Source: a virus
IMG/VR virus record: IMGVR_UViG_3300049005_000046
Coordinates: 1 to 25,282 of that record
Direction: 5' to 3' (one strand)
DNA: 25,282 bases
The notes beneath the pieces are model-generated. The model was not told the origin of the DNA. It searched no databases and saw only the letters and a program-made list of their open reading frames with translations. A program made the position numbers and the translations under genes. This document shows positions 65-20,900 of the stretch, piece by piece. Positions within the stretch are counted from its first letter, which is position 1, and every line of letters starts with the position of its first letter.

Positions 65-2068
65 TCAGGCGGCCGGGCAGAGCACGCTTTCCGCCGCGCC
101 TGTCGCACCGGACGCGCACAGCGGGACGGTCAGCAGCCTGGCGTCGTAGCACCTCTTCCCGACCATCAGCCCCTCCTCGGAAAAGAGGGCCGTGTACTTG
201 TTGGTCTCCAGGAGGGTGGAGTCGTAGATGCCGTCGAGCGTGATCACGCTCGCCTGGCCGGCGAAGAACGTGCCGGCCGGGTAGAGAAGGATCTTGACGG
301 TCGCCGGCCACGTCTTGCTGGGGGTCGCCCCGCCGATGTCGGTCGCCGTCCCGGAGATCAGCGCGTCCTGCCAGTCGTAGACGCGTTGGACGGCGACGCC
401 GCGCAGCGCCAACCACTGCGTGACCTGCTGGTCGGTGACGGACAGCATGTCCACGCCCGTCCTTTTCGCCAAGTCCGACCGCAGCACCCCATCGAGCCAG
501 TCGGGGATGATGCACTCCACCGTCGCTTCCTGCGGCAGCCGGTACTTGTACCGGATGTCGGTGACCTGCAACTCGATCAGCCCGAGGACCGACGCGGTCG
601 CGCCCGGCCCGTACGGCGCGTTGCCGGACCCGGGCACGGTGATGGTGACGGCGGTGGCGAGCGCCGCCATCCGCTTGATCTTCTCCGCGTTCACCCGGTG
701 GGCGTGCGCGATCAGCGCGTTCTCGGTGACGTACTTGACCATCTCCGGATACCCGACCTGCTGCAGGATGCCGGCCTGGATGCACAGGCCGACCGCGTCC
801 AGCCGCGTCTCGCTGAACGGCGGGCAGGTCACCTCGTAGCACGGCTTGACGTCGCCGGCGATATTCTGCGCCTCCGTCTGGATGAACCCGGTGGCCGAGT
901 AGATGGCGCTGAAGTCGGGCGGGGTCGGCCACCTCAGGCCGCCGCGCATCACGGTGACGGTGGGGATGTTCACCATCCCGTCCTCCGACGCCGTGCCGCA
1001 CAGGTCATACAGGACCTCGGACGGTGCGCACCAGCCGCCGGCGGCCACCAGGCTGCCGCCGGGGAGGGTCTTCTCGTTCGCGGCCCGCTCCACGGCCTGC
1101 CAGTCGCCTTCGTCCCGCACCGTCAGCCCTGGGTCGGAGTGGCGGCGGAGGGTGATGATGCCGGCCTGCATCTGCCGGTTGGCCCCCAGCCGGGCCATCG
1201 CCTGCATCTTCCGGGACACCGCGTCGACCACCTGGTCCATGTCGTCCAGGTCGGCGCCGGCCGGCACGCCGGGGATGTCGGCGGCGGCGATCGCCGTGTA
1301 CTTCCGCTGCGCCTTCCGCTGCGGCGGCCCGCTGGTCGGGATGGCGCCGAGGGGGACGCGGGGGCGGGGGACGCCGGCGGCCGCCACCGGCTCCGGGACC
1401 GGCTGGGCCGGAGGCGCCGGCGGTGCCTGCTGCTGGGGAGGTGCGGTCGGCGGCTGCCCGGCCGGCGGCGGTTGCGGTGGGGGCGGGGGCGGTGGCGGGT
1501 CGGCGGGCGGCGGCTGGGGCTGGCCGCCTGCCTGCCCGCCGTCGCCGGGGTCGGGCTGGTTCGGTGTGCCGCCGCCTTCGCCGCCTTCGCCGCCTTCGCC
1601 GCCTTCGCCGGCGGGATCGGCGGGGTCGGGGTCCGGCGGGGTGGTCGCGGCGTGGACGCGGGCAGCGATGTCGGCCGCCCGCTGCTGTGCCGCCGCGCGA
1701 GCTTCGTCGGCGGCGTGCCGCTCGGCCTGCACCGCCTCGACCACATCGGCCAGGGCCTCCATGGAGGCGAGGTCGGCGTCGGTGTGGTCGGTGCGGTCGG
1801 ACAGTCCCTGAAACTGGTCCAGGGCCTGCTGGCCGACCGAGTCGAGGTCGACCGCCACCTCGGGGTTGGCGAGGAAGGCGCGGAGCGCCGCCGCCCTGTC
1901 CTCGGGCGTGGAGGAAGCGTGCTGCCGGGCGACGTCGAGAAGCTGGCTGAGGAAGTCCACTGCTGCCCCCACGGACAGGGAGTCGACCGCGGTTTCCGTC
2001 GCGGTCCCGTCCTCCCGGCCCTCAGCCTGCGGAGCAACCTGCCCACACGTAGTGGGGCGGTTGTTCAC
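65..2068 (-). CDS. Major capsid protein with fused N-terminal scaffold-like region
   Basis: This is the phage major head protein, assembling the icosahedral shell. From the GTG chosen at 2068 it is 667 aa. The N-terminal part (about residues 30-150) is acidic, helical and rich in Ala/Glu/Gln, like a scaffold or delta domain. It is followed by a Gly/Pro-rich linker holding GGE repeats and long proline runs, and then by the shell domain (about residues 240-667), which contains VAAGGWCAPSEVLYDL, FIQTEAQNIAGDVKPCYEV and a C-terminal portion typical of actinophage HK97-fold capsid proteins. Start is uncertain: the frame is open to 2227, GTG 2068, 1972 and 1960 are alternatives, and none has a clear Shine-Dalgarno. 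The maturation protease, portal and terminase upstream on the same strand support the assignment. Oddly, the gene is separated from the protease by an oppositely oriented plus-strand cassette, so it probably has its own promoter; TACAGT just before GTG 2068 could be a -10 element. Family identity is inferred from sequence pattern, not from a search. Confidence 0.85.
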   Translation of the reverse strand: MNNRPTTCGQVAPQAEGREDGTATETAVDSLSVGAAVDFLSQLLDVARQHASSTPEDRAAALRAFLANPEVAVDLDSVGQQALDQFQGLSDRTDHTDADLASMEALADVVEAVQAERHAADEARAAAQQRAADIAARVHAATTPPDPDPADPAGEGGEGGEGGEGGGTPNQPDPGDGGQAGGQPQPPPADPPPPPPPPQPPPAGQPPTAPPQQQAPPAPPAQPVPEPVAAAGVPRPRVPLGAIPTSGPPQRKAQRKYTAIAAADIPGVPAGADLDDMDQVVDAVSRKMQAMARLGANRQMQAGIITLRRHSDPGLTVRDEGDWQAVERAANEKTLPGGSLVAAGGWCAPSEVLYDLCGTASEDGMVNIPTVTVMRGGLRWPTPPDFSAIYSATGFIQTEAQNIAGDVKPCYEVTCPPFSETRLDAVGLCIQAGILQQVGYPEMVKYVTENALIAHAHRVNAEKIKRMAALATAVTITVPGSGNAPYGPGATASVLGLIELQVTDIRYKYRLPQEATVECIIPDWLDGVLRSDLAKRTGVDMLSVTDQQVTQWLALRGVAVQRVYDWQDALISGTATDIGGATPSKTWPATVKILLYPAGTFFAGQASVITLDGIYDSTLLETNKYTALFSEEGLMVGKRCYDARLLTVPLCASGATGAAESVLCPAA
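1571..1606. repeat. 9-bp tandem repeat, four units, inside capsid gene
   Basis: The plus-strand unit GCCGCCTTC occurs four times in a row. On the coding (minus) strand it encodes repeated Glu-Gly-Gly in the linker between the scaffold-like and shell regions. The unit length is a multiple of three, so copy number changes would only lengthen or shorten the linker. Confidence 0.9.
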
Positions 2069-2174
2069 GACTGTAGCTGATGAGGCGCGGGTGGTTTGGG
2101 GGTTGCCGGCTGGCCTGTCGAGTGGCGGTGGGACTATTGGGGTGGTTTGGGTGTGAGAGAGCCGCACTACCTGC

Positions 2175-2795
2175 GTGAAGGGGTGCGGTGGTGTCCGTGC
2201 GGTGGTCTCCGCGGTGACGGCTCTCACCCCACCCCAGCACCCGCTCGTCTGGCGGGCGCTGAACCTCGCGCACGCCTTCTACCGGGGTCGGCGGCCGGCG
2301 GTGGGGCGGGAACCGCTGACGGCCCACACCATGCGCTTCCTTCGCCACCTTGAGCGCCACGTCGACGCGCCGGCGCCGGAGCTGGTCGCGGCCGCGCTCC
2401 TCCACCACGCGCTCGACGGGCCCGGCTCGCGCGAGGCCGCGCTGCGCGCTGTCGCACGAGGCTGCGGCTGGCAGGTCGCGCGGGTGGTCGAGGCGTTCCA
2501 AGACCAAGCCGATCGTGTCGGCCGGCCCGCCCCGCCCGGCCCGCCGACCACCCTCACAGAGTTGTGGGCGAGCTGGTTGGTGGCCTGCGAGCACCACGTG
2601 GTCCTGACCGCCCTCCTCCACCTCGCCCCGCCCGAGGAACTGGTGGCGACGGCCGACTGGTACCTGCCGGCCGTCCGCCGGTTCCTGGAAGGCAGCCGCG
2701 ACCACCTCCTCACCCTCCTCGCGGTTGAGCTGGCGGTGGCCATCGATGCCGTCGACCACGCCGCCGAGTGGGAAGCACGGAATGTGAGGGGTTGA
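2175..2795 (+). CDS. HD-like domain protein (degenerate metal motif), first gene of RiPP-like cassette
   Basis: This 206-aa, alpha-helical protein resembles the HD hydrolase fold of RelA/SpoT-type (p)ppGpp hydrolases: an early His-containing helix (LAHAFYRG), then HTMRFLRHL, then AAALLHHALDGPG where the family normally has L-L-H-D, and a later helix with ACEHH. The Asp of the hallmark HD doublet is replaced by His, so metal-dependent phosphohydrolase activity is doubtful. The GTG at 2175 has GAGAGAG 13 nt upstream; GTG 2202 and GTG 2214 are alternatives, and the recognisable domain begins just after them. It is divergent from the capsid gene and about 90 nt before the radical SAM gene, so it probably belongs to the same cassette. 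Its role is unknown; substrate binding, regulation or peptide processing are possible. Confidence 0.7.
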   Translation: MKGCGGVRAVVSAVTALTPPQHPLVWRALNLAHAFYRGRRPAVGREPLTAHTMRFLRHLERHVDAPAPELVAAALLHHALDGPGSREAALRAVARGCGWQVARVVEAFQDQADRVGRPAPPGPPTTLTELWASWLVACEHHVVLTALLHLAPPEELVATADWYLPAVRRFLEGSRDHLLTLLAVELAVAIDAVDHAAEWEARNVRG

Positions 2796-2861
2796 CGGCG
2801 GACGGTCGCCGGGGTGGGATAGGGCCGGGTTTGGGTGCTTTGGGGAGAGCCGAGTCCCTCG

Positions 2862-2878
2862 TGTCCGAATATCGGAGG
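2862..2878 (+). promoter_or_regulatory. Hairpin/ribosome-site module before radical SAM gene
   Basis: TGTCCGAATATCGGAGG contains a 5-bp inverted repeat (TCCGA/TCGGA, 3-nt gap) whose right arm runs into the Shine-Dalgarno GGAGG. It ends 7 nt before the TTG start of the radical SAM gene. The same 17 nt with one mismatch, at identical spacing, precede the gene at 22610. Confidence 0.6.
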
Positions 2879-2885
2879 AGGCAGG

Positions 2886-4046
2886 TTGAGCACCCCCACC
2901 ACCACACCGACCACCACCCCGACCAGGCTGGCCGGGCGGGAGCTGGTCGCCGCCCGCTTCCTCACCCACCACCTGATCGTCAGGCAGGGCAGCGAGCGCG
3001 GCCTCACCGTCCCCGCCGCCCACTACCGGGCGCTGGAGAGCGCGCCACCCGACAAGCCGCCGCCCGGATGGCTGGTCGACGCGGCCCGCGAAGCCTGGGG
3101 CGTCGACGTGGCCGACGACCTGGCCGACCGGCCGACCCGCCCCACCATCCTCTTCCGCGACCCATCACCGTACGGATACGGCAGGGCAAGCTACGAGCTC
3201 AACCTCGGCTGCAACTACGACTGCGAACACTGCTACCTCGGCCTGAAGCGGTTCGAGGGCCTGGCCTGGCCAGACCGGAAACGCCTCCTCCACCTGCTCG
3301 CCGACGCGGGGGTGGTGTGGTTGCAGTTGACCGGCGGGGAACCGCTGATCGATCGCCTCTTCCTCCCCACCTACCAGCTCGCCTGGCAGCTCGGGATGAT
3401 GATCACGATCTCCAGCAACGGGTCACGCCTCGCCAACCCCGACATCCTCCACACCCTCACCACCCACCGGCCATACCGGATCACGTTGAGCGTGTACGGG
3501 GCGACCGCGGACGCCTACGACTCCTTGACCCGCCGCCCCGGCTCCTACCGCAAGTTCATGAAGGGGCTGACCGCCGCCCACCACGCGGGTCTGCCGCTGC
3601 GCCTCAACCTCGTTCTCACCCGCCACAACGCCCACGAGGCCGACGCGATGGCCGCGATAGCCGACGGGCTCGGCATCCCCCACCACTCCTACAGCAACAT
3701 CTCGCCCACCATTTACGGCGGGGCGGAGGCGCTGCCGTCCCAGTCGACGGAGTACCTGAAGAAGCGGAAGCCGTTCACCGGCTGCAACGCCGGCCACACC
3801 TTCTTCCACGTCGACCCGCACGGCCGCGCCAGCATCTGCAAGATCGGCCGGGAGCCCAACGTCCCGCTGGTCGAGGAAGGCATCACCAGCCTGGCCCGCC
3901 TCGGGCACATCGCCGACGGCCTCCTGACCCGCCAGGGCGGCTGCTCCGGCTGCACCCTGTCCGGGTCGTGTGGGACGTGCATGCCGCTCGCCGCCCTCTA
4001 CCGGAAGGCCGGCGCGGACAAGACCGCCTACTGCCAGCACCGCTGA
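2886..4046 (+). CDS. Radical SAM/SPASM peptide maturase (RiPP-modifying)
   Basis: This 386-aa protein is a radical S-adenosylmethionine enzyme with a C-terminal SPASM domain, expected to modify a ribosomal peptide in the cytosol. The TTG at 2886 was chosen because GGAGGAG lies 5-6 nt upstream; an earlier in-frame start at 2835 lacks this. Residues 1-100 form an N-terminal region that could bind the precursor. The CX3CX2C cluster motif is C109-N-Y-D-C113-E-H-C116, followed by LTGGEPL (SAM binding) and ISSNGS. The C-terminus has the seven-cysteine SPASM pattern: C300, then a GX4C ending at C318, C353-X2-C356-X5-C362-X2-C365 and C383, ligands for two auxiliary 4Fe-4S clusters. The next gene, 30 nt downstream, encodes a 60-aa peptide with an ideal ribosome site, its likely substrate. 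The reaction (thioether, C-C link, epimerisation or other) cannot be read from sequence. An anaerobic sulfatase maturase was considered, but no sulfatase is nearby. Confidence 0.9.
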   Translation: MSTPTTTPTTTPTRLAGRELVAARFLTHHLIVRQGSERGLTVPAAHYRALESAPPDKPPPGWLVDAAREAWGVDVADDLADRPTRPTILFRDPSPYGYGRASYELNLGCNYDCEHCYLGLKRFEGLAWPDRKRLLHLLADAGVVWLQLTGGEPLIDRLFLPTYQLAWQLGMMITISSNGSRLANPDILHTLTTHRPYRITLSVYGATADAYDSLTRRPGSYRKFMKGLTAAHHAGLPLRLNLVLTRHNAHEADAMAAIADGLGIPHHSYSNISPTIYGGAEALPSQSTEYLKKRKPFTGCNAGHTFFHVDPHGRASICKIGREPNVPLVEEGITSLARLGHIADGLLTRQGGCSGCTLSGSCGTCMPLAALYRKAGADKTAYCQHR

Positions 4047-4076
4047 ACCGCCCCACGCTGAAGGAGGTACTCGCTC

Positions 4077-4259
4077 ATGCCACCTGTCCCCATCGCTCTC
4101 CTCACCCGCCCGCCCAGCTCCGACACCCCGCCGGCTGACGCCCCAGCTGACGAAATGGTCGGCGGGCTGATCGGCGAGGTGACCGTCATCGGTGACCTGG
4201 ACAAGGTGGTCGAGACCACCATGTGCAGCTGCGCGGCGGGCGACGACGCGCCCTACTGA
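4077..4259 (+). CDS. Putative RiPP precursor peptide (60 aa)
   Basis: This small peptide has a textbook Shine-Dalgarno (AAGGAGGT, 8 nt before ATG) and starts 30 nt after the radical SAM/SPASM gene. Its layout resembles a RiPP precursor: a Pro/Thr-rich N-terminus, a central leader-like stretch with IGEVTVIGDLDKVVETT, then a short C-terminal candidate core MCSCAAGDDAPY with two Cys, two Asp and a terminal Tyr. The segment DLDKVVE is reminiscent of the FxLD leader of actinobacterial lanthipeptides, but no lanthionine synthetase is present here, so this may be chance or a shared recognition motif. Likely modified residues are Cys, Asp, Thr or Tyr; which one is not known. No protease or exporter is evident in the cassette. 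Confidence that it is translated is high; that it is a precursor is inference from position, size and residues. Confidence 0.75.
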   Translation: MPPVPIALLTRPPSSDTPPADAPADEMVGGLIGEVTVIGDLDKVVETTMCSCAAGDDAPY

Positions 4260-4335: not shown

Positions 4336-5142
4336 GTGGCGTTGAGCCGTGTCGCGTGGGACGAGCTGGGCGACGAGGTGCGGGCAGCGGTCGCTGCTCG
4401 CACCGGCCGCCTGCTTGACGTGCAGATGGCGGGGGAAGGGATGAACTCACCCATCGCCTTCCACCTCACCACCCTCACCGGCCGCGTCTTCCTCAAGGGC
4501 CTCCACCGCGACCACCGCGGCGGTGTCGAGGCGCAGCAGCGGGAAGCCGCCGTCAACCCCTACGTCGCCCACCTCACCGCCCGCATCCTGTGGCAGGCGG
4601 AGGTGGCCGGCTGGCACCTGCTGGCCTTCGAGCACCTGCCGGGCCGGCACGCCGACTACCACCCCGACGCCCACGACCTCCCCCAGGTCGTCCGGCTCAT
4701 CGACCAGCTCACCGCCACCCCGCCGCCGCCTCACGACGTCCCGGTCAGGCAGGCCGGGCAGCGGTGGGCCGCCTACCTCCCGCCCGGCGCGGAGGAACTG
4801 CTCGACGGCACGACGCTCCTCCACACCGACCTCAGCCCCGACAACGTGCTGGTGGACGGCGACACCGCCCGCCTGATCGACTGGGCGTGGCCGACGGTCG
4901 GCGCGCCGTGGATCGACCCGGCCGTCCTTGCCTTCCAGCTCATCGCCGCCGGCCACCCACCCCGCCAGGCCGAGCAGTGGGCGGCCAGGACCGCCGCATG
5001 GTCGTGCGGGACGCGGGAAGCGGTCGACGCCTTCGCCGCGGCCAACAGCAGCCTGTGGGAGGAGATCGCGCGGCAGGACCCGACACCGTGGAAGAAGGAG
5101 CTGGCGGCCGCCGCGTACGCGTGGGCCGACTACCGCTTCTGA
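4336..5142 (+). CDS. APH/choline-kinase-fold phosphotransferase
   Basis: This 268-aa cytosolic kinase belongs to the aminoglycoside phosphotransferase (APH) superfamily. The N-lobe includes GEGMNSPIAFHL and RVFLKGLHRD; the C-lobe carries the catalytic Brenner motif H163-T-D165-L-S-P-D-N170 and the metal-binding IDW (D182), followed by GAPWIDPAVL, all as in active members. Length is normal for the family. The GTG at 4336 lacks a ribosome site, but a -10-like TAGCCT lies 6 nt upstream, suggesting leaderless translation. It follows the precursor-like peptide by 76 nt on the same strand, so it may phosphorylate the peptide, a cofactor or a small molecule; similarity to APH does not by itself show antibiotic resistance. 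It could also be an unrelated cargo gene. Confidence 0.85.
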   Translation: MALSRVAWDELGDEVRAAVAARTGRLLDVQMAGEGMNSPIAFHLTTLTGRVFLKGLHRDHRGGVEAQQREAAVNPYVAHLTARILWQAEVAGWHLLAFEHLPGRHADYHPDAHDLPQVVRLIDQLTATPPPPHDVPVRQAGQRWAAYLPPGAEELLDGTTLLHTDLSPDNVLVDGDTARLIDWAWPTVGAPWIDPAVLAFQLIAAGHPPRQAEQWAARTAAWSCGTREAVDAFAAANSSLWEEIARQDPTPWKKELAAAAYAWADYRF

Positions 5143-5184
5143 TCCGGAGTTCACACCCGGGCCGCCTCGCGGACCTATAGGGGT

Positions 5185-5435: not shown

Positions 5436-5627
5436 TTACCCGGTTGTGGTGATGGCGGGCAGGGGAGGTGGGTCCGGCTCAGCTCCCCACCTGCCGAGCA
5501 CGGCGCCGACCCACAGGCCCGCGACGCCGGCGAGCGCGAGCCAGAACAGGGTGCGGGCGAGCCGGCAGCGGGGCCGGTAGCGGGACCGGCTCACGCTCGC
5601 CATGCGGGCCCTCGGGCGGGCCTTCAT
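5436..5627 (-). CDS. Small membrane protein, single TM
   Basis: This 63-aa protein has a basic N-terminus (KARPRARMASVSRSRYRPRC), one hydrophobic segment (about residues 25-46, LARTLFWLALAGVAGLWVGAVL) and a short Pro-rich tail. Predicted topology is N-in with the tail outside. Its ATG overlaps the stop of the preceding small gene (ATGA), so translation is probably coupled. It is the last gene of the portal-protease operon before the terminator. Function unknown. Confidence 0.6.
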   Translation of the reverse strand: MKARPRARMASVSRSRYRPRCRLARTLFWLALAGVAGLWVGAVLGRWGAEPDPPPLPAITTTG

Positions 5628-5788
5628 GCCGGCTTGGTGACGACGACACCGCCGGTCGCCACCCGCGCCGCCTCCGCCTCGGCGGCTGTCAGATACGGGC
5701 CGTGCTCCTTCCCGTCCGGAGCCCGCACGACGTACTTCTCCCGCGCCGACCTGTTGCCGCTGTTGTTCCCGCCGCATCCGCAGCCCAT
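5624..5788 (-). CDS. Small Cys/Gly-rich N-terminus protein (DUF7196-like)
   Basis: This 54-aa protein begins MGCGCGGNNSGN and continues with KYVVRAPDGKEHGPYLTAAEAEAARVATGG, a compact beta-beta-alpha shape. Similar tiny proteins with a CxCGG start are common next to capsid protease genes in actinophages (DUF7196-like, from memory). The ATG at 5788 is preceded by GGGAG at a suitable distance and lies 1 nt after the protease stop. The two cysteines could bind metal. Function unknown, possibly a head accessory protein. Confidence 0.7.
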   Translation of the reverse strand: MGCGCGGNNSGNRSAREKYVVRAPDGKEHGPYLTAAEAEAARVATGGVVVTKPA

Positions 5789-5789
5789 G

Positions 5790-7781
5790 TCAGGCTCCCT
5801 TCCCGGCCCGCCCCGCCGCACGACCCACCCGCTCCCCGAGCAGCTGGACGCGGGTGTTGCGGACGCGGGCGGCGACCTCCTCGGCTCGCCGAGTGCGGGC
5901 CGCCTCGTCCTGCTGCTCGCCCATCAGCTCAACGACCCTGCGCGCGACCCGCTCCGCCGACACGTCGGGGGGCCGCCGGCCCGCCCGCCGTACCCGTACA
6001 CGGTGGGGGAGGGCGCCTGCCGCGACCAAGCTCAACGGCCGCCCTTCCTCGCCGGTGCGGAAGCGGGGGATGGGGAAGCCCGGCACGTTGACCGCCAACG
6101 CCGCCACCAGCTCAAGGTGCCCGCCGACCGGCCGCCAGTCGCCGGAGAGGGGCGAGCGGCGCAGCACGGCCACCTGCTCCTCGGTGAGGCCGGGCAGGAG
6201 GCTACCGGCGACCCAGATCCCATGCTCATCCTCGCCAGCGGCGACGGCGGCGGCCGCCGACCCGGTGTGGGCGTAGTGGGTCATCGTGTCGACCAGGCCG
6301 GCGGTGGGTTCGGCGTGCGTCGTGCCGGCGACGATCGTGCCGACCGGCACGTCCGCCCCCTCGGCCGTGCGGATGAGACCGGTGTGGAACAGGCCGTACC
6401 CGGTCGCGGAGTGGGGTGGGGTGCGGCAGTGGCCGGTGATCCCGGTGTGGCAGGTCTCCCACGTCGCGAGGTGCCCGTAGACGCGGCCGTCGTCGGTGAC
6501 GGCGAGCGGGGTCGGCCCGGCCAGCTTCGGGTCTGCGAACCAGGCGGCCGGCGGTGCGGCCGGGCCGCCGGCCGCCACCACCGGCGCGACCGGCCGGGTG
6601 GTGATCATGCCGCCGGACGCCGGGGCGAGGCTGCTCGCGCTCGAGTCTTCCCACGGCGGGGTGATGCTGGAGTCGTTGAACTCGCGCGCCGCCGCCCGGT
6701 ACAGGGCGGCCAGCTTCGCCTTCACCGCGTCCATCTCGCTGTCCGGGATGCCGACGCGGCCGCGCGCCGACGCGGCCGCGAACACACCGCGCAGGACGGC
6801 GCGGAGCTGGCCGTCCACGATGTCGGCGAAGCCCAGCTTGTACGCGCTCACGCTCATAGGCGGCTGGTCGGGGTCGCGCCACAGGAACGCGCGGCTGTAC
6901 TTGGTGGGGTCGATGGCGTTGCTGTCGCCCTTGGCCCAGTCGGCGACCCGCTGCGCCGCCGCCGCGCTGTCCCACGCGTGGTCGCGGGGGGCCCAGGGGA
7001 GGCCGGCGTCGCCGACCGCCCCGAAGCTCGGCGAGGTGCCGTGGGTGGACTGAAGGGACGCGGCGACCGGTGTCGTCCCCGCACCGACCGGCTGAGACCC
7101 GTTCGGGGGCACACCTGGTGGCATGTCCTGCGGCATGTCGTCGTAGACGGCTTCGATCTTCGCTTCCGCGAACGCGGGCTGCGCGACCAGCGTGGCGCTC
7201 ATCAGCCGCCACTCGACCGCGGCCTCCACCATCTCCAGCCCCTCGGGGACTTCGAGGATGATCCAGCCGTCGCCGTCATCGATCTCCTCGATCGCGGTCT
7301 CGCAGTCGACCTCCGCCCCGTCCTGGTAGCAGCGGGTTTCGAACGTCACGTTGTCGAGGTCGACCGACACCCACCCGGCCATCCCGCGCGCCAGCTTCCC
7401 CGCCACCTCCTGCGCTTGCGGGTTGACGAGGTCGAACGTGCCCTCACCCCACAGGAACCCGCCCTCGACCCACGCCCGCGTGATCTGGCCGACGTCGTAG
7501 GCGCCCGCATGCTCGCCCTCCAACGTCGGCTGGTACAGCAGGAGCATGGGGTAGGGGCGGGTCTGCGGTTGCCCGCCCGGCGGGGCGACGATCATCCGCC
7601 GGTCGCCGGACTGGGTGTCGAGGGGGGCCAGCCGGCCACGCCAGCCTGACGGCAAGCGGCTGCCGTCAGGACCGGTCGCTGGCGTGGCCGGCTGGGTGCC
7701 GCCCGCGTCCTGCTGGCCCGGTGGGGGGGTGGTGTCCACCGGCGGCGCGGCAGTCTGGGCGGCTTGGAGTTTGGTCATCAT
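5790..7781 (-). CDS. Capsid maturation protease
   Basis: This 663-aa protein is the prohead protease that processes scaffold and capsid during head assembly. ATG 7781 is preceded by GGGAGGG and overlaps the stop of the MuF gene (ATGA). The protease domain (about residues 30-190) shows MIVAPPGGQ, a probable catalytic His in TLEGEHAGAYDVG and a probable nucleophile Ser in GWVSVDLDN, as in actinophage serine proteases. A variable linker (about 215-400) leads to a conserved C-terminal region with YGHLATWETCHTGITGHC and the following GYGLFHTG, also typical of the actinophage family. At 663 aa it is long; the C-terminal half may be a structural or scaffolding domain released after cleavage. The catalytic residues are inferred from motif position, not from a structure. 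Confidence 0.85.
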   Translation of the reverse strand: MMTKLQAAQTAAPPVDTTPPPGQQDAGGTQPATPATGPDGSRLPSGWRGRLAPLDTQSGDRRMIVAPPGGQPQTRPYPMLLLYQPTLEGEHAGAYDVGQITRAWVEGGFLWGEGTFDLVNPQAQEVAGKLARGMAGWVSVDLDNVTFETRCYQDGAEVDCETAIEEIDDGDGWIILEVPEGLEMVEAAVEWRLMSATLVAQPAFAEAKIEAVYDDMPQDMPPGVPPNGSQPVGAGTTPVAASLQSTHGTSPSFGAVGDAGLPWAPRDHAWDSAAAAQRVADWAKGDSNAIDPTKYSRAFLWRDPDQPPMSVSAYKLGFADIVDGQLRAVLRGVFAAASARGRVGIPDSEMDAVKAKLAALYRAAAREFNDSSITPPWEDSSASSLAPASGGMITTRPVAPVVAAGGPAAPPAAWFADPKLAGPTPLAVTDDGRVYGHLATWETCHTGITGHCRTPPHSATGYGLFHTGLIRTAEGADVPVGTIVAGTTHAEPTAGLVDTMTHYAHTGSAAAAVAAGEDEHGIWVAGSLLPGLTEEQVAVLRRSPLSGDWRPVGGHLELVAALAVNVPGFPIPRFRTGEEGRPLSLVAAGALPHRVRVRRAGRRPPDVSAERVARRVVELMGEQQDEAARTRRAEEVAARVRNTRVQLLGERVGRAAGRAGKGA

Positions 7782-16318: not shown

Positions 16319-16951
16319 TCAGCCCTTCCGGCCGGCCAGCGCGAAGAACTCGGCCCGCGTCTCCGCCTGCTTTCGGAACGCTCCGCGCAGGGCGGAGGTG
16401 TGGAAGGCCGCGCTGCGCTTCCGCGCCCCCCGCACCGTCATGCACGTGTGTACCGCTTCCAGCACCACACCCACCCCTGACGGCTTCAGGTGGTCTTCGA
16501 TGGCGTCGGCGACCTGGTTGGTCAGCCGTTCCTGCACTTGCAGGCCGCGTGAGTAGGCGTCGACGACGCGGGCCAGCTTGGACAGGCCGACGATCCGCCT
16601 GCTGAGCGGCAGGTAGGCGACCCACGCATGCCCGTAGAAGGGGAGGAGGTGGTGTTCGCACAGCGACACGAACTCGACGGGCCCGCAGCAGACCATCTGG
16701 TCGACCTCGCCGGCGTCCTCGAACTGGACGGCCAGCAGCTCGCCGACCGTGCGGTCCGGTGGCGTGGTCATTTCCTCAAGGGCTGCGATGACCCGGTCGG
16801 GGGTGCGGGCGAGGCCGGGGCGGTCCGGGTCGTCGCCGGCGAGCTGGAGGAGGGCACGCACCCCGTCCCGCGCCGCCTCCACCGGGCTGTGGGGGCGGCG
16901 CATGCTGGTCGCGGGTGGGGTGGTGGATGCGGGGGCACCGATCTGGGTCAT
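16319..16951 (-). CDS. folE: GTP cyclohydrolase I (FolE)
   Basis: This 210-aa enzyme converts GTP to dihydroneopterin triphosphate, the first step of 7-deazaguanine synthesis. Zinc ligands C98 and H101 (in LCEHHLLPFYGHAWVAYLP) and C170 (in HTCMTVRGARK) are all present, as is the substrate loop around QVQERLT. A 25-residue N-terminal extension is poorly conserved. ATG 16951 shares one base with the queE stop (TGATG), which sets the start. Its place next to queE and queD shows it supplies the phage pathway and not only folate. Confidence 0.95.
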   Translation of the reverse strand: MTQIGAPASTTPPATSMRRPHSPVEAARDGVRALLQLAGDDPDRPGLARTPDRVIAALEEMTTPPDRTVGELLAVQFEDAGEVDQMVCCGPVEFVSLCEHHLLPFYGHAWVAYLPLSRRIVGLSKLARVVDAYSRGLQVQERLTNQVADAIEDHLKPSGVGVVLEAVHTCMTVRGARKRSAAFHTSALRGAFRKQAETRAEFFALAGRKG

Positions 16952-17727
16952 CAGCGGCCCTTCTGATCGTCGTAGAGGAGGGTGTGGAGGCGGGTGGTGG
17001 TGTGGAAGCCGTGCGCGTGGATGGCGGCGGCGATGGCGCGGTGCGTCTCTACCACCGCGGCGGCGGTCGTCCCCTCCGGCATGATCCACACCGCGTCGGC
17101 CGGCAGGTGGTGGGCGGCAGCCAGCTCGGCGGCCTCGCGTACGTCGAGGATGCTGGTGCAGACGAACTTGAAGCAGGCCCGGCCGTCCTCGGCCAGCTCG
17201 CGGAACGCGGCGAGCGGTTTCGACTTGACCCGCTGCCGCTCCGCCACCCCGCTGTTGCCGAGCTTGGGGGAGACCGTCCAGTGGTCGACCCGCTCAGCGA
17301 GCCATGGCCGGGGCACCAGCGTTCCGTTCGTCTCGACATGCCACCGGCCCTGCCAGCCGGTCACCAGGGCGCTGAGACCCTCCCGCGACTGCCACAGGAG
17401 CGGCTCACCGCCGGTCATGACGCACAGGGTGGTGCGGTGGCCGAGGAGGGCGCCGAGGACGGCGGTGACCGACGTTTCCGGGCAGGTCTGGGTGAGGTCG
17501 TGGCGGGCGGCGTCCCACGTCTCCGGCTGATCACACCAGGCGCAGTCGAGGTTGCAGTGGCCGAGGCGGAGGAAGGAGCAGCGGCGGCCGGCGTGCGGGC
17601 CTTCCCCCTGCCACACCGGCCCGTACACCTCGGCGACGGGGAGCGTGATCGGGCCGCCGATCTGGGACGGGGGTGGTGGCGGGATGGCGACCGGCACCCC
17701 CGGCGGCAGCGGCGGCGGATAGCTCAT
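16951..17727 (-). CDS. queE: 7-carboxy-7-deazaguanine synthase (QueE), radical SAM
   Basis: This 258-aa radical SAM enzyme rearranges 6-carboxytetrahydropterin to 7-carboxy-7-deazaguanine. The cluster motif is C58-N-L-D-C62-A-W-C65, followed by VMTGGEPLL, VETNGT and VSPKLGNSG, all QueE hallmarks. The first 30 residues are a Pro-rich extension. ATG 17727 overlaps the queD stop by 4 nt (ATGA). Length is near normal for QueE (about 210-250). Confidence 0.93.
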   Translation of the reverse strand: MSYPPPLPPGVPVAIPPPPPSQIGGPITLPVAEVYGPVWQGEGPHAGRRCSFLRLGHCNLDCAWCDQPETWDAARHDLTQTCPETSVTAVLGALLGHRTTLCVMTGGEPLLWQSREGLSALVTGWQGRWHVETNGTLVPRPWLAERVDHWTVSPKLGNSGVAERQRVKSKPLAAFRELAEDGRACFKFVCTSILDVREAAELAAAHHLPADAVWIMPEGTTAAAVVETHRAIAAAIHAHGFHTTTRLHTLLYDDQKGR

Positions 17728-18269
17728 CGCCCGGCTCCGTTGGCGGCGGCCGCCGGCGTGGCCACCACGCTCGCGGAGTTGGTCTGCGTCTCCCGCACCC
17801 GCACCCGCGACACGCACGCGCCGGGCGCGGGTGCGGTGGTCGCCGCGAGGGCATGCCCGGCCAGCCGGTGGAGGAGGCCGGCGACCTCCTCCACCGTCGG
17901 CCACAGCTGCCCGGCGGTGGTGAACTGGCTGCGCTCCTGGTCGCCGAAGACGAAGACCTTGCAGCCCTGCGCGATGAGGATCGAGGTGAGCGGGTCGTCG
18001 CGGCCCAGCATGCTGCCGTGGTCGAGGTAGCCGTCGATGAGGCCGCGGAGGCGGGCCTTGAACTCGCCGAACTCCACCACCGTCCCCAGCGGGGTGAGCT
18101 CGGGCGCTGAGACGGCGATGTCGACCCGCCACGAGTGGCCGTGGAGGCTGGCGCACTTCCCGCCGAGGTGGGGGAGGCGGTGGGCGGCCTCCCACGTGTG
18201 GCTGACGGTGATGACGTGCCGGACGGCCGCCGGCGTCGCTGCGCGGCTTGTCACCTGATGTCGCGTCAC
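17724..18269 (-). CDS. queD: 6-carboxytetrahydropterin synthase (QueD)
   Basis: This 181-aa enzyme converts dihydroneopterin triphosphate to 6-carboxytetrahydropterin. Zinc ligands H30 (EAAHRLP), H43 and H45 (LHGHSW) and catalytic C39 (GGKCASLHGH) are visible, plus VVEFGEFK and YLDHGSMLG, matching the D-F and L-D-H motifs of the family. A 25-30-residue C-terminal tail is Ala/Thr-rich and probably disordered. The GTG at 18269 overlaps the queC stop (GTGA). Confidence 0.93.
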   Translation of the reverse strand: MTRHQVTSRAATPAAVRHVITVSHTWEAAHRLPHLGGKCASLHGHSWRVDIAVSAPELTPLGTVVEFGEFKARLRGLIDGYLDHGSMLGRDDPLTSILIAQGCKVFVFGDQERSQFTTAGQLWPTVEEVAGLLHRLAGHALAATTAPAPGACVSRVRVRETQTNSASVVATPAAAANGAGR

Positions 18270-19489
18270 GCCGGGCCTTCCAGGGAGAGCGGCGCGACGG
18301 TGGTGGTCGGCTGGTCATCCGCCCACCAGTCGGGGCCGTACCCGATCCGCGCCATGATCACGTAGGCGGTGGCGTCGCGGCCGACCCGCTGCCCAGACCG
18401 CACCCGCGCGTCGTGCTTGGCCCAGAAGTCGCGGGCCGGGCCGTCCAGCTTCAGCCCGCCGGGGAAGGTCGCGGTGACCTCATCGAGGAAACCGGCGCCG
18501 CCGAACGCCAGGACCCGCTGGAGGCACGCCCAGCACGCCCCGCAGTGCGAGGTGTCGGGCTGGTAGCAGGTGCGGGTGGCGAGGGCTTCGTCCAGCCGGC
18601 CGCGCTCCGCCCACCAGCGGACCAGGTCCATCTTGCTGAGCCCCTGGAGGGGGTGGGTGAGGTGGAAGTCGAAGCCGGCGGCCGTCATCAGCTGCTGCAG
18701 GGTGGTGTGGAAGCGGAGGCTCTTGTCGCCGGCCGCCAGCTTCGTCTCATCGCCCCGGTTGCCGACCCAGATCTCCCCCCACTGGCCGCGGTGGGCTTCG
18801 GCGACCGTCCACAGGATCGCCGCGTTCCGGCCGCCCTGAATGTGCTGGTAGGTGCGTTTGTAGGCGAGGGGGCGGGTGATGACGGACAGGTCGGGGGCGA
18901 AGAGGCGGGCGGTCTTGATCTCCTCCTCGGCGTACGGGATGCCGGTGTCGATGTAGACGGCGATGCGGGGCAGTTCCAGCTCGCACGCCATCGCCCACGC
19001 GGTGGTGGAGTCGAGGCCGCCGGTCAGCGGGACGACGACCACCGCGCCCGGCGCGTGGTCGCCGGTGGACTCGGGGTTTTCGGCGCAGTTGTCCATCGCC
19101 GCCCGGAAGGGGGTGTCGACCGGGCCGCCCACCCACTCCGCCACCGGGTCGATGTCGTCGGGGGCGAGGCGGACCCACTCCTCCTGCGCGGCCGGTGGGA
19201 GGAGCAGCCCGCGGTCGTCCATGTAGACGTCGCCGTTGACCTTCCCGTAGGTGAGCTGGTGGTAGGGGACGTGGTGGAGGTGGAGCCAGTAGGCCAGCTC
19301 GCTGTGGTGGGCCGGGGGGCGGGAAGTCTGGATGACGATGCGGAACCCGGCGACCTCCAGCCGCTTGAGGAGGGCGATGAGGCCGGGGCGGGGCGGGCCG
19401 GGGGCTTCCCGCTGCGTGTCGACACAGACGGTCCCGTCGAAGTCGATGACGAGGGTCGGCTCGTGGTACCAGTTCCGGACGCCGTTCAC
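18266..19489 (-). CDS. queC: HAD-phosphatase/7-cyano-7-deazaguanine synthase (QueC) fusion
   Basis: This 407-aa protein joins two enzymes. Residues 1-110 form a small HAD-type domain with D16-F-D18-G-T, a motif II Ser/Thr in IVIQTSRPP, and YGKVNGDVYMDDRG supplying Lys and the acidic pair. Residues 148-407 are QueC, which makes preQ0 from 7-carboxy-7-deazaguanine with ATP and ammonia: PP-loop TGGLDST at 156-162, DTGIPYAEEE, and the zinc site C308, C316, C319, C322 in TCYQPDTSHCGACWACLQR. QueC alone is about 220-240 aa, so the N-terminus is an added domain. GTG 19489 has GGAGG upstream and overlaps the preceding stop (GTGA). The HAD substrate is unknown. Confidence 0.92.
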   Translation of the reverse strand: MNGVRNWYHEPTLVIDFDGTVCVDTQREAPGPPRPGLIALLKRLEVAGFRIVIQTSRPPAHHSELAYWLHLHHVPYHQLTYGKVNGDVYMDDRGLLLPPAAQEEWVRLAPDDIDPVAEWVGGPVDTPFRAAMDNCAENPESTGDHAPGAVVVVPLTGGLDSTTAWAMACELELPRIAVYIDTGIPYAEEEIKTARLFAPDLSVITRPLAYKRTYQHIQGGRNAAILWTVAEAHRGQWGEIWVGNRGDETKLAAGDKSLRFHTTLQQLMTAAGFDFHLTHPLQGLSKMDLVRWWAERGRLDEALATRTCYQPDTSHCGACWACLQRVLAFGGAGFLDEVTATFPGGLKLDGPARDFWAKHDARVRSGQRVGRDATAYVIMARIGYGPDWWADDQPTTTVAPLSLEGPA

Positions 19490-19995
19490 GCGACACCTCC
19501 CGCCTGCTGGCCGGCTGCCGTGCTGGCTGCCTGGCTGCGGTCTGAGCCGCCGGGGTCGCGGAACGCGGCCTCCGGCAGCGGGTGGCCGGTCGCGAGCGCC
19601 CACCAGCCGGCGCAGACCATGTAGCCGAGCGGCATGCCGGCCGCCCACGCCGCCGGCTGGTAGCCGGTGCCTTCGGCCTGGTCCTGCCTGAGCATCCCGT
19701 GGTGGCAGAAGAAGGCGGTGTCGGGGCCGGGGCGGCGGGCGTCTTCCTCCTCGGGGCTGCCCGGCCGGTAGGCGCAGTCGACGCACGGACTCTTCATCAC
19801 GGCGGGCGGTCGGGGAAGCGCCACCACCTCTTCCGGGCTGTAGCCGGCGATGTCGTCGGTGGTCCCGGAGCCGTGGCAGTGCAGGCACTTCTCGCCCGAC
19901 TCCCACCGCCCGTTGTCGCAGTATGGGCAGCGGTAGCGGCTGAGCCTGACCGTCCCAGCCGCCGGGCTCGGTACCGAGTAGTTGACGCAGTTCAT
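19486..19995 (-). CDS. Cys-rich zinc-binding protein within modification operon
   Basis: This 169-aa protein has a DnaJ-like zinc knuckle, C23-P-Y-C26 and C37-L-H-C40-H-G-S-G, then a second cluster C71-V-D-C74-A-Y-R-P-G-S-P with C97-H-H and C128 (AFFCHHGM, YMVCAGWW). These suggest two metal sites. It lies between dpdA and queC with 4-nt overlaps on both sides and an ideal GGAGG ribosome site, so it is made together with the modification enzymes and may be a further base-modifying enzyme or DNA-targeting partner. The C-terminal 35 residues are low-complexity. No named family was recognised with certainty. Confidence 0.8.
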   Translation of the reverse strand: MNCVNYSVPSPAAGTVRLSRYRCPYCDNGRWESGEKCLHCHGSGTTDDIAGYSPEEVVALPRPPAVMKSPCVDCAYRPGSPEEEDARRPGPDTAFFCHHGMLRQDQAEGTGYQPAAWAAGMPLGYMVCAGWWALATGHPLPEAAFRDPGGSDRSQAASTAAGQQAGGVA

Positions 19996-20900
19996 GACAC
20001 TTCAACCTCCTGGGGTGGGCAGGGGGTGACGGGCAGGCTGCCGGCGACCGCGTACTTCCACTCGTCGGGGCCGACGGCGAGGTACAGCTTGGTGCCGAGT
20101 TCGGCGGGTGGCAGGTCGCGCGGCGGGGTGACGCGGTGGCGGCGGACGAGGTACTGCCCCCACGCGGCGAAGGAGCGGGCGGCGGCGACGACCAGCTTCA
20201 CCCGGTCGTCAGACGCCTCGCCGTACCGGCGGAAGTCGGGCTGGAGGACGCGGTGGGCTGGCAGGTCGTAGGCACGCAGCAGGGCGGCGTGCCGCGCGAC
20301 GTCTTCCCGCCTGCGGTAGTACACGCGGGTGAGCCGCATCCGCCGCTCATCCCACAGGGTCACCAGCGGGCAGCGGATGGACATGGTGAACGTCGATGAG
20401 TCGACGGAGTACAAGGGCATCCTGTTGAGCAAGCCCGGCGCGGTGATACCGAACGCGTGGAACCGCGCCCCATGCTCGCCGCCGACGCGGAGGCAGCGGA
20501 GCAGCCACGCGCCGATGGCCCGCCGTGATGGACGGCCGCCGGCCAGGCCGCCGAGCGCGATGTAGGGGTAGGTGCGGCAGAGCGCGGCCAGCTCGTCCCA
20601 CGGCTCCCCTCCGTGGAAGACGGGGAAGACGTGGCAGCCCCGCCGCTCCATCTCGTGCAGGTTGCGGCGTGACGCGGCGTGGTCGCCGACCACGTCGAGG
20701 TTGGCGGCGGTGGTGAACAGGCCGTCCCAGTCGCGCAGCCAGGCCGCGTACTCGCCCGGCTTGATCACCGCCCCCGTCGTGTACGCGCTGTACGCGCCGG
20801 AGTCGGCGAACAGGTCGACGCCGCCCGGCACCCGGTCGACCAGCGCGGCCAGGTCGACGGTGCGGAAGTAGTGGTAGCTGACGAGGATCTGCGGCTTCAC
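19992..20900 (-). CDS. dpdA: DpdA-like DNA transglycosylase (7-deazaguanine insertion into DNA)
   Basis: This 302-aa protein resembles phage DpdA, a tRNA-guanine transglycosylase (TGT) relative that swaps guanine in DNA for a 7-deazaguanine. TGT-like motifs in order: DLFADSGAYSAY (D33, first catalytic Asp), NLDVVGD (D69), FPVFHGGEP, IALGGLAGGR (117-123, base-binding loop), FHAFGITAP and YSVDSSTF with D167, the probable nucleophile. The CxCxxC-H zinc site of true TGT is absent, as expected for phage DpdA. GTG 20900 overlaps the ParB-like stop (GTGA). Being in one operon with folE, queD, queE and queC makes the DNA role very likely. Confidence 0.88.
   Translation of the reverse strand: MKPQILVSYHYFRTVDLAALVDRVPGGVDLFADSGAYSAYTTGAVIKPGEYAAWLRDWDGLFTTAANLDVVGDHAASRRNLHEMERRGCHVFPVFHGGEPWDELAALCRTYPYIALGGLAGGRPSRRAIGAWLLRCLRVGGEHGARFHAFGITAPGLLNRMPLYSVDSSTFTMSIRCPLVTLWDERRMRLTRVYYRRREDVARHAALLRAYDLPAHRVLQPDFRRYGEASDDRVKLVVAAARSFAAWGQYLVRRHRVTPPRDLPPAELGTKLYLAVGPDEWKYAVAGSLPVTPCPPQEVEVS

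What the first reader, a model, noticed from the sequence alone, without database searches (positions are those of the whole stretch)
4077..4259. Precursor-like peptide with CSC core and FxLD-like leader segment but no lanthionine synthetase
The peptide ends in MCSCAAGDDAPY, and its middle has DLDKVVE, reminiscent of FxLD lanthipeptide leaders. Here the partner is a SPASM enzyme and a kinase, not a LanM-type enzyme, so the chemistry may differ from known classes.
Basis: partly seen in the sequence, partly recalled or inferred. Interest (0 to 1): 0.72.

Follow-up and report, generated by a model that had tools for sequence, protein, structure and literature searches.

The report
Phage-borne radical-SAM peptide with tyrosine kinase
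A small gene beside a radical enzyme and a kinase in this phage fragment encodes the raw peptide of a widespread, apparently undescribed family of chemically modified actinobacterial peptides, whose conserved tail (two cysteines, two aspartates, Pro-Tyr) shows where the enzymes probably act.

Summary
Of 201 distinct full-length homologues of that enzyme, 200 have a small peptide immediately downstream ending in C-x-C-x3-D-D-[NQ]-P-[YHFN] or x-C-x-[DNE]-D-N-P-[YF]; in one the peptide is fused to the enzyme. It is not an FxLD lanthipeptide (no family hit), although a conserved acidic-hydrophobic leader motif is real. The family is frequent in Actinomycetia (69 of 392 genomes sampled from the genus of a Streptomyces genome) and also sits in phages and plasmids. 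The third gene is an APH-like kinase, a GNAT acetyltransferase, or both. Whenever the kinase is present the residue after Pro is Tyr (147 of 147); without it Tyr is mostly absent (48 of 53). On the enzyme tree the two traits never change in opposite directions, though few independent changes keep that test marginal. Best reading: the enzyme makes Cys-to-Asp thioether link(s), as PapB does (chemistry inferred), and the kinase phosphorylates the Tyr. No published description was found in the open library searched. In the window the cassette is an inverted insertion between phage head genes. Product activity is unknown.

The parts
4077..4259 (+). precursor peptide, 60 aa; leader about residues 1-49, core CSCAAGDDAPY residues 50-60
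   Evidence: same small ORF downstream of 200 of 201 homologous radical SAM genes
4224..4256 (+). core codons C50-S-C52-A-A-G-D56-D57-A-P59-Y60; C52-X3-D56 spacing
   Evidence: in 113 distinct CxC-type tails both Cys 113/113, D(-3) 107, D(-2) 108, Pro 112
4062..4067 (+). Shine-Dalgarno AGGAGG of the peptide gene
   Evidence: read directly
2835..4046 (+). radical SAM/SPASM maturase (start uncertain; homology begins at about 2940); CX3CX2C and seven-Cys SPASM pattern
   Evidence: PF04055 E 6e-12; invariant C91 C95 C98, C282 G295 C300 C335 C338 C344 C347 C365, numbered from nt 2940
4336..5142 (+). APH-family kinase with HTDLSPDN and IDW motifs; proposed to phosphorylate Tyr60
   Evidence: PF01636 E 4e-9
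2175..2795 (+). HD_4-like protein (weak), part of the same inserted + strand segment; role unknown, not found at other loci
   Evidence: HD_4 E 0.002, below cut-off; no homologue near any other radical SAM locus
65..2227 (-). phage major capsid protein bordering the cassette on one side
   Evidence: (NF033847, 612.7 bits)
5624..5821 (-). small phage head-module ORF bordering the cassette on the other side (by position like the ~80 aa gene before the capsid gene in relatives)
   Evidence: homology of the small proteins not tested

Best explanation
A three-gene cassette making a radical-SAM RiPP: the SPASM enzyme modifies the C-terminal core of the 60-aa precursor, most likely by joining core Cys to a downstream Asp through a radical thioether (ranthipeptide-like), guided by the conserved leader segment; the APH-family kinase then (or before) phosphorylates the Tyr that follows Pro. 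Related loci use a GNAT acetyltransferase instead of, or together with, the kinase. In this window the cassette is cargo (a moron) between phage head genes. Shown: the precursor-enzyme pairing, core conservation, kinase-Tyr coupling, phage setting. Inferred: thioether chemistry (about 0.5), Tyr as the kinase's target (about 0.65), and everything about biological activity.
For: Peptide immediately behind 200 of 201 distinct radical SAM homologues; pattern nowhere else in the first 106 loci; peptide fused to the enzyme's C-terminus in L094. Two-Cys cores (113 distinct tails) have two nearly invariant Asp, one-Cys cores (65) have one strictly invariant Asp (65/65), fitting one-to-one Cys-Asp pairing, with spacings CX2D to CX6D; PapB makes Cys-Xn-Asp thioethers for n = 0-6 (PMC9413430). 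Seven-Cys SPASM pattern invariant. Kinase present: Tyr 147/147; kinase absent: non-Tyr 48/53; two kinase-less one-Cys loci, L020 and L201, both read DNPF while their nearest kinase-bearing relatives read DNPY. On the tree the two traits change together in about 4-5 of 6-7 independent pairs and never in opposite directions. Kinase keeps HxDxxxxN in 132 of 147. Precedent: PadeK phosphorylates the conserved C-terminal Ser of the paeninodin precursor (PMC9266682).
Against: No chemistry was measured. The sign test on independent pairs is marginal (p about 0.06-0.125), because there are few independent changes, and L020 and L201 are each other's nearest relatives. Some two-Cys cores have only one Asp (Ser or Asn at -3 or -2 in about 10 of 113 tails). 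No leader-binding (RRE) domain was recognised by sequence in the N-terminal region. No dedicated protease or transporter recurs. The enzyme's best profile hits include cofactor enzymes (AhbD, NirJ, mycofactocin), not only peptide maturases.
Confidence: 0.6

Rival explanations
1. Same precursor and maturase, but the radical chemistry differs: alpha-thioether (sactipeptide), a carbon-carbon or carbon-oxygen crosslink, or another oxidation, with Cys needed for other reasons such as binding to an auxiliary cluster or metal.
For: Solved relatives include SkfB (sactipeptide maturase), PqqE (carbon-carbon bond), SuiB-type and YydG (epimerase); invariant Asn and Pro in one-Cys cores (65/65) are unexplained by a Cys-Asp link.
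Against: Cys and Asp are the invariant pair in both core types, and their numbers match.
Confidence: 0.3
2. The kinase and the acetyltransferase are self-protection or inactivation enzymes (as in antibiotic resistance) that modify a toxic mature peptide, not biosynthetic tailoring enzymes.
For: APH and GNAT are the classic resistance-enzyme families and replace each other here; cassette is carried on phages and plasmids; no other immunity gene recurs.
Against: No transporter or export gene recurs beside it; many loci have a divergent regulator, which fits a signalling or regulatory product as well.
Confidence: 0.2
3. A PQQ- or mycofactocin-like small cofactor cut from the peptide's C-terminus.
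For: Enzyme profile hits to mycofactocin MftC, PqqE, heme enzymes; small number of genes; C-terminal aromatic residue.
Against: Tyr is replaced by His, Phe or Asn in 48 loci and is followed by further residues (R, N, Q, K, T) in 51 of 65 one-Cys tails, so no fixed C-terminal Tyr chemistry; invariance centres on Cys and Asp.
Confidence: 0.08
4. FxLD-type lanthipeptide precursor.
For: DLDKVVE in the leader.
Against: No hit to any NCBIfam or Pfam model; no LanB/C/M-like gene at the locus; core Ser is replaceable (S99 N9 A4 F1) and absent from one-Cys cores.
Confidence: 0.01
5. Prokaryotic viperin-like antiviral system (radical SAM enzyme with kinase), the small ORF being incidental.
For: Weak PADLOC pVip hits (51 bits, 'viperins associated with kinases').
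Against: Viperin NCBIfam model scores 44.8 against a cut-off of 180; the SPASM Cys set is present; the peptide is the most constant neighbour.
Confidence: 0.02

Closest known systems
Ranthipeptides made by PapB (PapA; Cys-Xn-Asp thioethers to the Asp beta-carbon)
   Same: SPASM radical SAM enzyme with a Cys- and Asp-bearing precursor; C-X3-D spacing occurs in the two-Cys cores; PapB accepts n = 0-6 (PMC9413430)
   Different: Single short core at the very C-terminus, conserved Asn/Gln-Pro-Tyr tail, kinase or acetyltransferase partner, Actinomycetia and phages; bond type unmeasured
Lasso peptide kinases PadeK/ThcoK and the acetyltransferase AlbT
   Same: A kinase whose presence goes with a hydroxyl residue at the precursor's end; acetylation as alternative tailoring in another lasso peptide (PMC9266682)
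   Different: Here Tyr, APH-family kinase, radical SAM scaffold, and kinase and GNAT interchange within one family
APH-like kinases of kintamdin, thioamitide and class V lanthipeptide pathways
   Same: Phosphotransferase acting on a RiPP precursor (kintamdin: PMC9415263; the other two from the same paper's introduction and from general knowledge)
   Different: No HopA1-type lyase recurs beside it; core Ser/Thr not conserved, so not dehydration
Mycofactocin / PQQ systems
   Same: Small precursor, SPASM radical SAM enzyme
   Different: Conservation centres on Cys and Asp, Tyr is replaceable, other pathway genes were not among recurrent neighbours

Membership tests
Radical SAM/SPASM RiPP maturase plus precursor | CX3CX2C motif and seven-Cys SPASM pattern | tested here: met
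   invariant in 15 aligned homologues
Radical SAM/SPASM RiPP maturase plus precursor | Small precursor encoded next to the enzyme with conserved leader and core | tested here: met
Radical SAM/SPASM RiPP maturase plus precursor | RiPP recognition element in the enzyme | tested here: inconclusive
Ranthipeptide | Cys and Asp/Glu at CXnD spacing in the core | tested here: met
Ranthipeptide | Cys sulphur bound to a non-alpha carbon | not testable with these tools
   needs mass spectrometry or NMR
FxLD lanthipeptide | Hit to a lanthipeptide precursor model | tested here: not met
   no NCBIfam hit at E<1
FxLD lanthipeptide | Lanthionine synthetase nearby | tested here: not met
   recurrent neighbours are kinase, GNAT and regulators only
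Prokaryotic viperin | Score over the curated viperin cut-off | tested here: not met
   44.8 against 180
APH-family kinase | HxDxxxxN catalytic motif | tested here: met
   132 of 147 (several of the rest are truncated); window HTDLSPDN

The most novel reading that the evidence does not exclude
A previously undescribed, widespread actinobacterial RiPP family in which a radical enzyme ties Cys to Asp and a dedicated APH-family kinase puts a phosphate on a Pro-Tyr tyrosine, with an acetyltransferase as evolutionary substitute, spread in part by phages and plasmids and often next to divergent helix-turn-helix regulators: possibly a phosphotyrosine peptide signal or toxin.
Probability: 0.4. Interest if true: 0.8.

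Novelty: new variant of a known kind. Interest (0 to 1): 0.66.

Why it matters
It would add a common but apparently unnoticed peptide product class to Streptomyces and relatives, give a natural set of one-Cys and two-Cys substrates for studying radical thioether enzymes, and offer a candidate dedicated kinase for a RiPP tyrosine. The interchange of kinase and acetyltransferase, tracked by one residue of the peptide, makes the tailoring site directly testable. Phage and plasmid carriage raises the question whether mobile elements use such peptides to manage host or competitors.

Tried and rejected
Peptide-only scan of viral contigs gave nothing (too short). FxLD lanthipeptide: no model hit. Viperin: below cut-off. 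RRE by sequence: no match. Literature searches for the core motif and for radical SAM with APH/GNAT found no description; only the open-access part of PubMed Central is held, so this is weak evidence of novelty. The HD-like gene was considered part of the system but occurs at no other locus. Close relatives of the window's capsid gene were not found in viral contigs, so the empty site was judged only from distant phages. The apparent window member of the fourth-gene family (4590-5180) is a shadow frame of the kinase. Two rows labelled 'P' are a regex artefact (V-P-Y); both are Tyr and are counted so.

Full report
What is there. The window is a 25,282-base virus record with phage terminase, portal, head-morphogenesis, protease and capsid genes on the minus strand. 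On the plus strand, between a small head-module ORF (5624-5821) and the capsid gene (65-2227), lie an HD-like ORF (2175-2795), a radical SAM/SPASM ORF (2835-4046), the reported peptide (4077-4259) and an APH-family kinase (4336-5142). In the distantly related phages Nicole72 and Hendrix the corresponding protease-capsid interval holds only one small gene and gaps of some 160-290 bases, so the plus-strand genes look like inserted cargo.

Is the peptide real. It has a good ribosome-binding site. Homologues of the radical SAM gene were collected from viral contigs, a Streptomyces phage (Success gp3-gp2-gp1), plasmids and genomes. Nearly all carry a peptide of roughly 38-75 residues right behind the enzyme. 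A core pattern was written from the first sets; it ends 104 of 39,955 stop-delimited frames in 106 loci and all of them are this ORF. In 201 distinct full-length enzymes, 200 have it under a slightly wider pattern; the one left, L085, has it in a frame that runs on near a contig end. In L094 the peptide is fused to the enzyme, independent support that it is the substrate.

Anatomy of the peptide. Counting from the Pro (0), two-Cys cores (113 distinct tails) read C(-9) S/N/A C(-7) x A/S G/S D(-3) D(-2) N/Q P and then Y, H, F or N; both Cys are invariant, the Asp are at 107 and 108 of 113. One-Cys cores (65 tails) read G C(-5) G/N D/N/E D(-2) N P Y/F, with Cys, D(-2), N and P all invariant, often followed by one or more further residues. 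So one Cys goes with one invariant Asp, two with two. The Cys and Asp columns are in part built into the search pattern, so the strongest tests of conservation are the positions the pattern left free or nearly free and the fact that it finds one ORF per locus and none elsewhere. The window's DDAPY is a minor variant (Ala at -1 in 5 of 113 tails).

The third gene. Recurrent downstream genes fall into an APH-like kinase family (80 loci of the first set) and a GNAT acetyltransferase family (27 loci), a few loci having both. In the enlarged set of 200: kinase present, 147, all with Tyr after Pro; kinase absent, 53, of which 48 have His (34), Phe (11) or Asn (3), and 5 Tyr. The residue after Pro was left free in that pattern. 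The kinase keeps its catalytic HxDxxxxN in 132 of 147. L020 and L201, one-Cys loci without a kinase, have Phe where their closest kinase-bearing relatives have Tyr; L103 and L104, GNAT-only phage loci 92% identical in the enzyme, differ as Phe and Tyr, as expected if the position is free once the kinase is gone. On enzyme trees kinase presence changes at least 7-8 times and Tyr at least 6; in independent pairs the traits move together in about 4-5 and never oppositely. The sign test is only marginal (p about 0.06-0.125) because changes are few. The simplest reading is that the kinase phosphorylates this Tyr.

Chemistry. The enzyme has CX3CX2C and the seven-Cys SPASM pattern. Solved sequence relatives are distant (BlsE, SkfB, PqqE, SuiB-type, YydG). 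PapB, a SPASM enzyme, forms Cys-Xn-Asp thioethers for n = 0-6 and accepts nested pairs (PMC9413430). The Cys/Asp arithmetic here makes a similar bond the best guess, but that is inference.

Spread and setting. Hits: 46 of 293 genomes in the order of a Streptomyces genome, 69 of 392 in its genus, 37 of 345 in the order of Actinomadura macra's genome, 8 of 348 in the order of an Amycolatopsis genome; up to three copies per genome. Group labels follow the named locus used as centre; the genomes themselves are unnamed. Of 108 loci with enough upstream sequence, 78 have a gene of the DUF5753, NsdA-like, helix-turn-helix or DUF6879 type within 3.3 kb, the NsdA-like ones nearly always divergent (31 of 33); DUF5753 and NsdA-family genes number about 10-58 and 17-44 per genome in ten genomes, so by rough arithmetic chance proximity would be a few percent. 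The window cassette lacks such a regulator and has the HD-like gene instead.

Novelty. No Pfam, NCBIfam or PHROG model covers the peptide, and no paper in the open library mentions the core motifs or the gene combination. The parts (SPASM maturase, APH kinase, GNAT) are known kinds; the combination, the core and the kinase-Tyr rule appear new. Hence 'new variant of a known kind'. Biological role remains open: toxin with modifying self-protection, regulated signal, or cofactor.

Noticed in passing
window 16319-17089 (-) and 18266-20005 (-): GTP cyclohydrolase and a QueC-like protein with a phosphoheptose-isomerase-like N-terminal part, suggesting 7-deazaguanine (PreQ0-type) DNA modification in this phage; the SIS-QueC join is odd.
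   Followed up: no
window 2175-2795 (+): HD_4-like protein in the same insertion, not found beside any other homologous radical SAM gene.
   Followed up: partly
L019:4281-4724, L081:7147-7620, L020:6340-6852 and others: A fourth-gene family of about 150 aa with an invariant CCQD motif, no Pfam match, downstream of the kinase in about a dozen one-Cys loci; it remains in kinase-less L020.
   Followed up: partly
L094:4941-6245: Peptide fused to the C-terminus of the radical SAM enzyme.
   Followed up: yes
upstream of many loci, e.g. L015:1756-3120 (-), L107:1485-2363 (-): NsdA-family or DUF5753 helix-turn-helix regulators, often divergent, suggest a regulated and perhaps signal-responsive operon.
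   Followed up: partly
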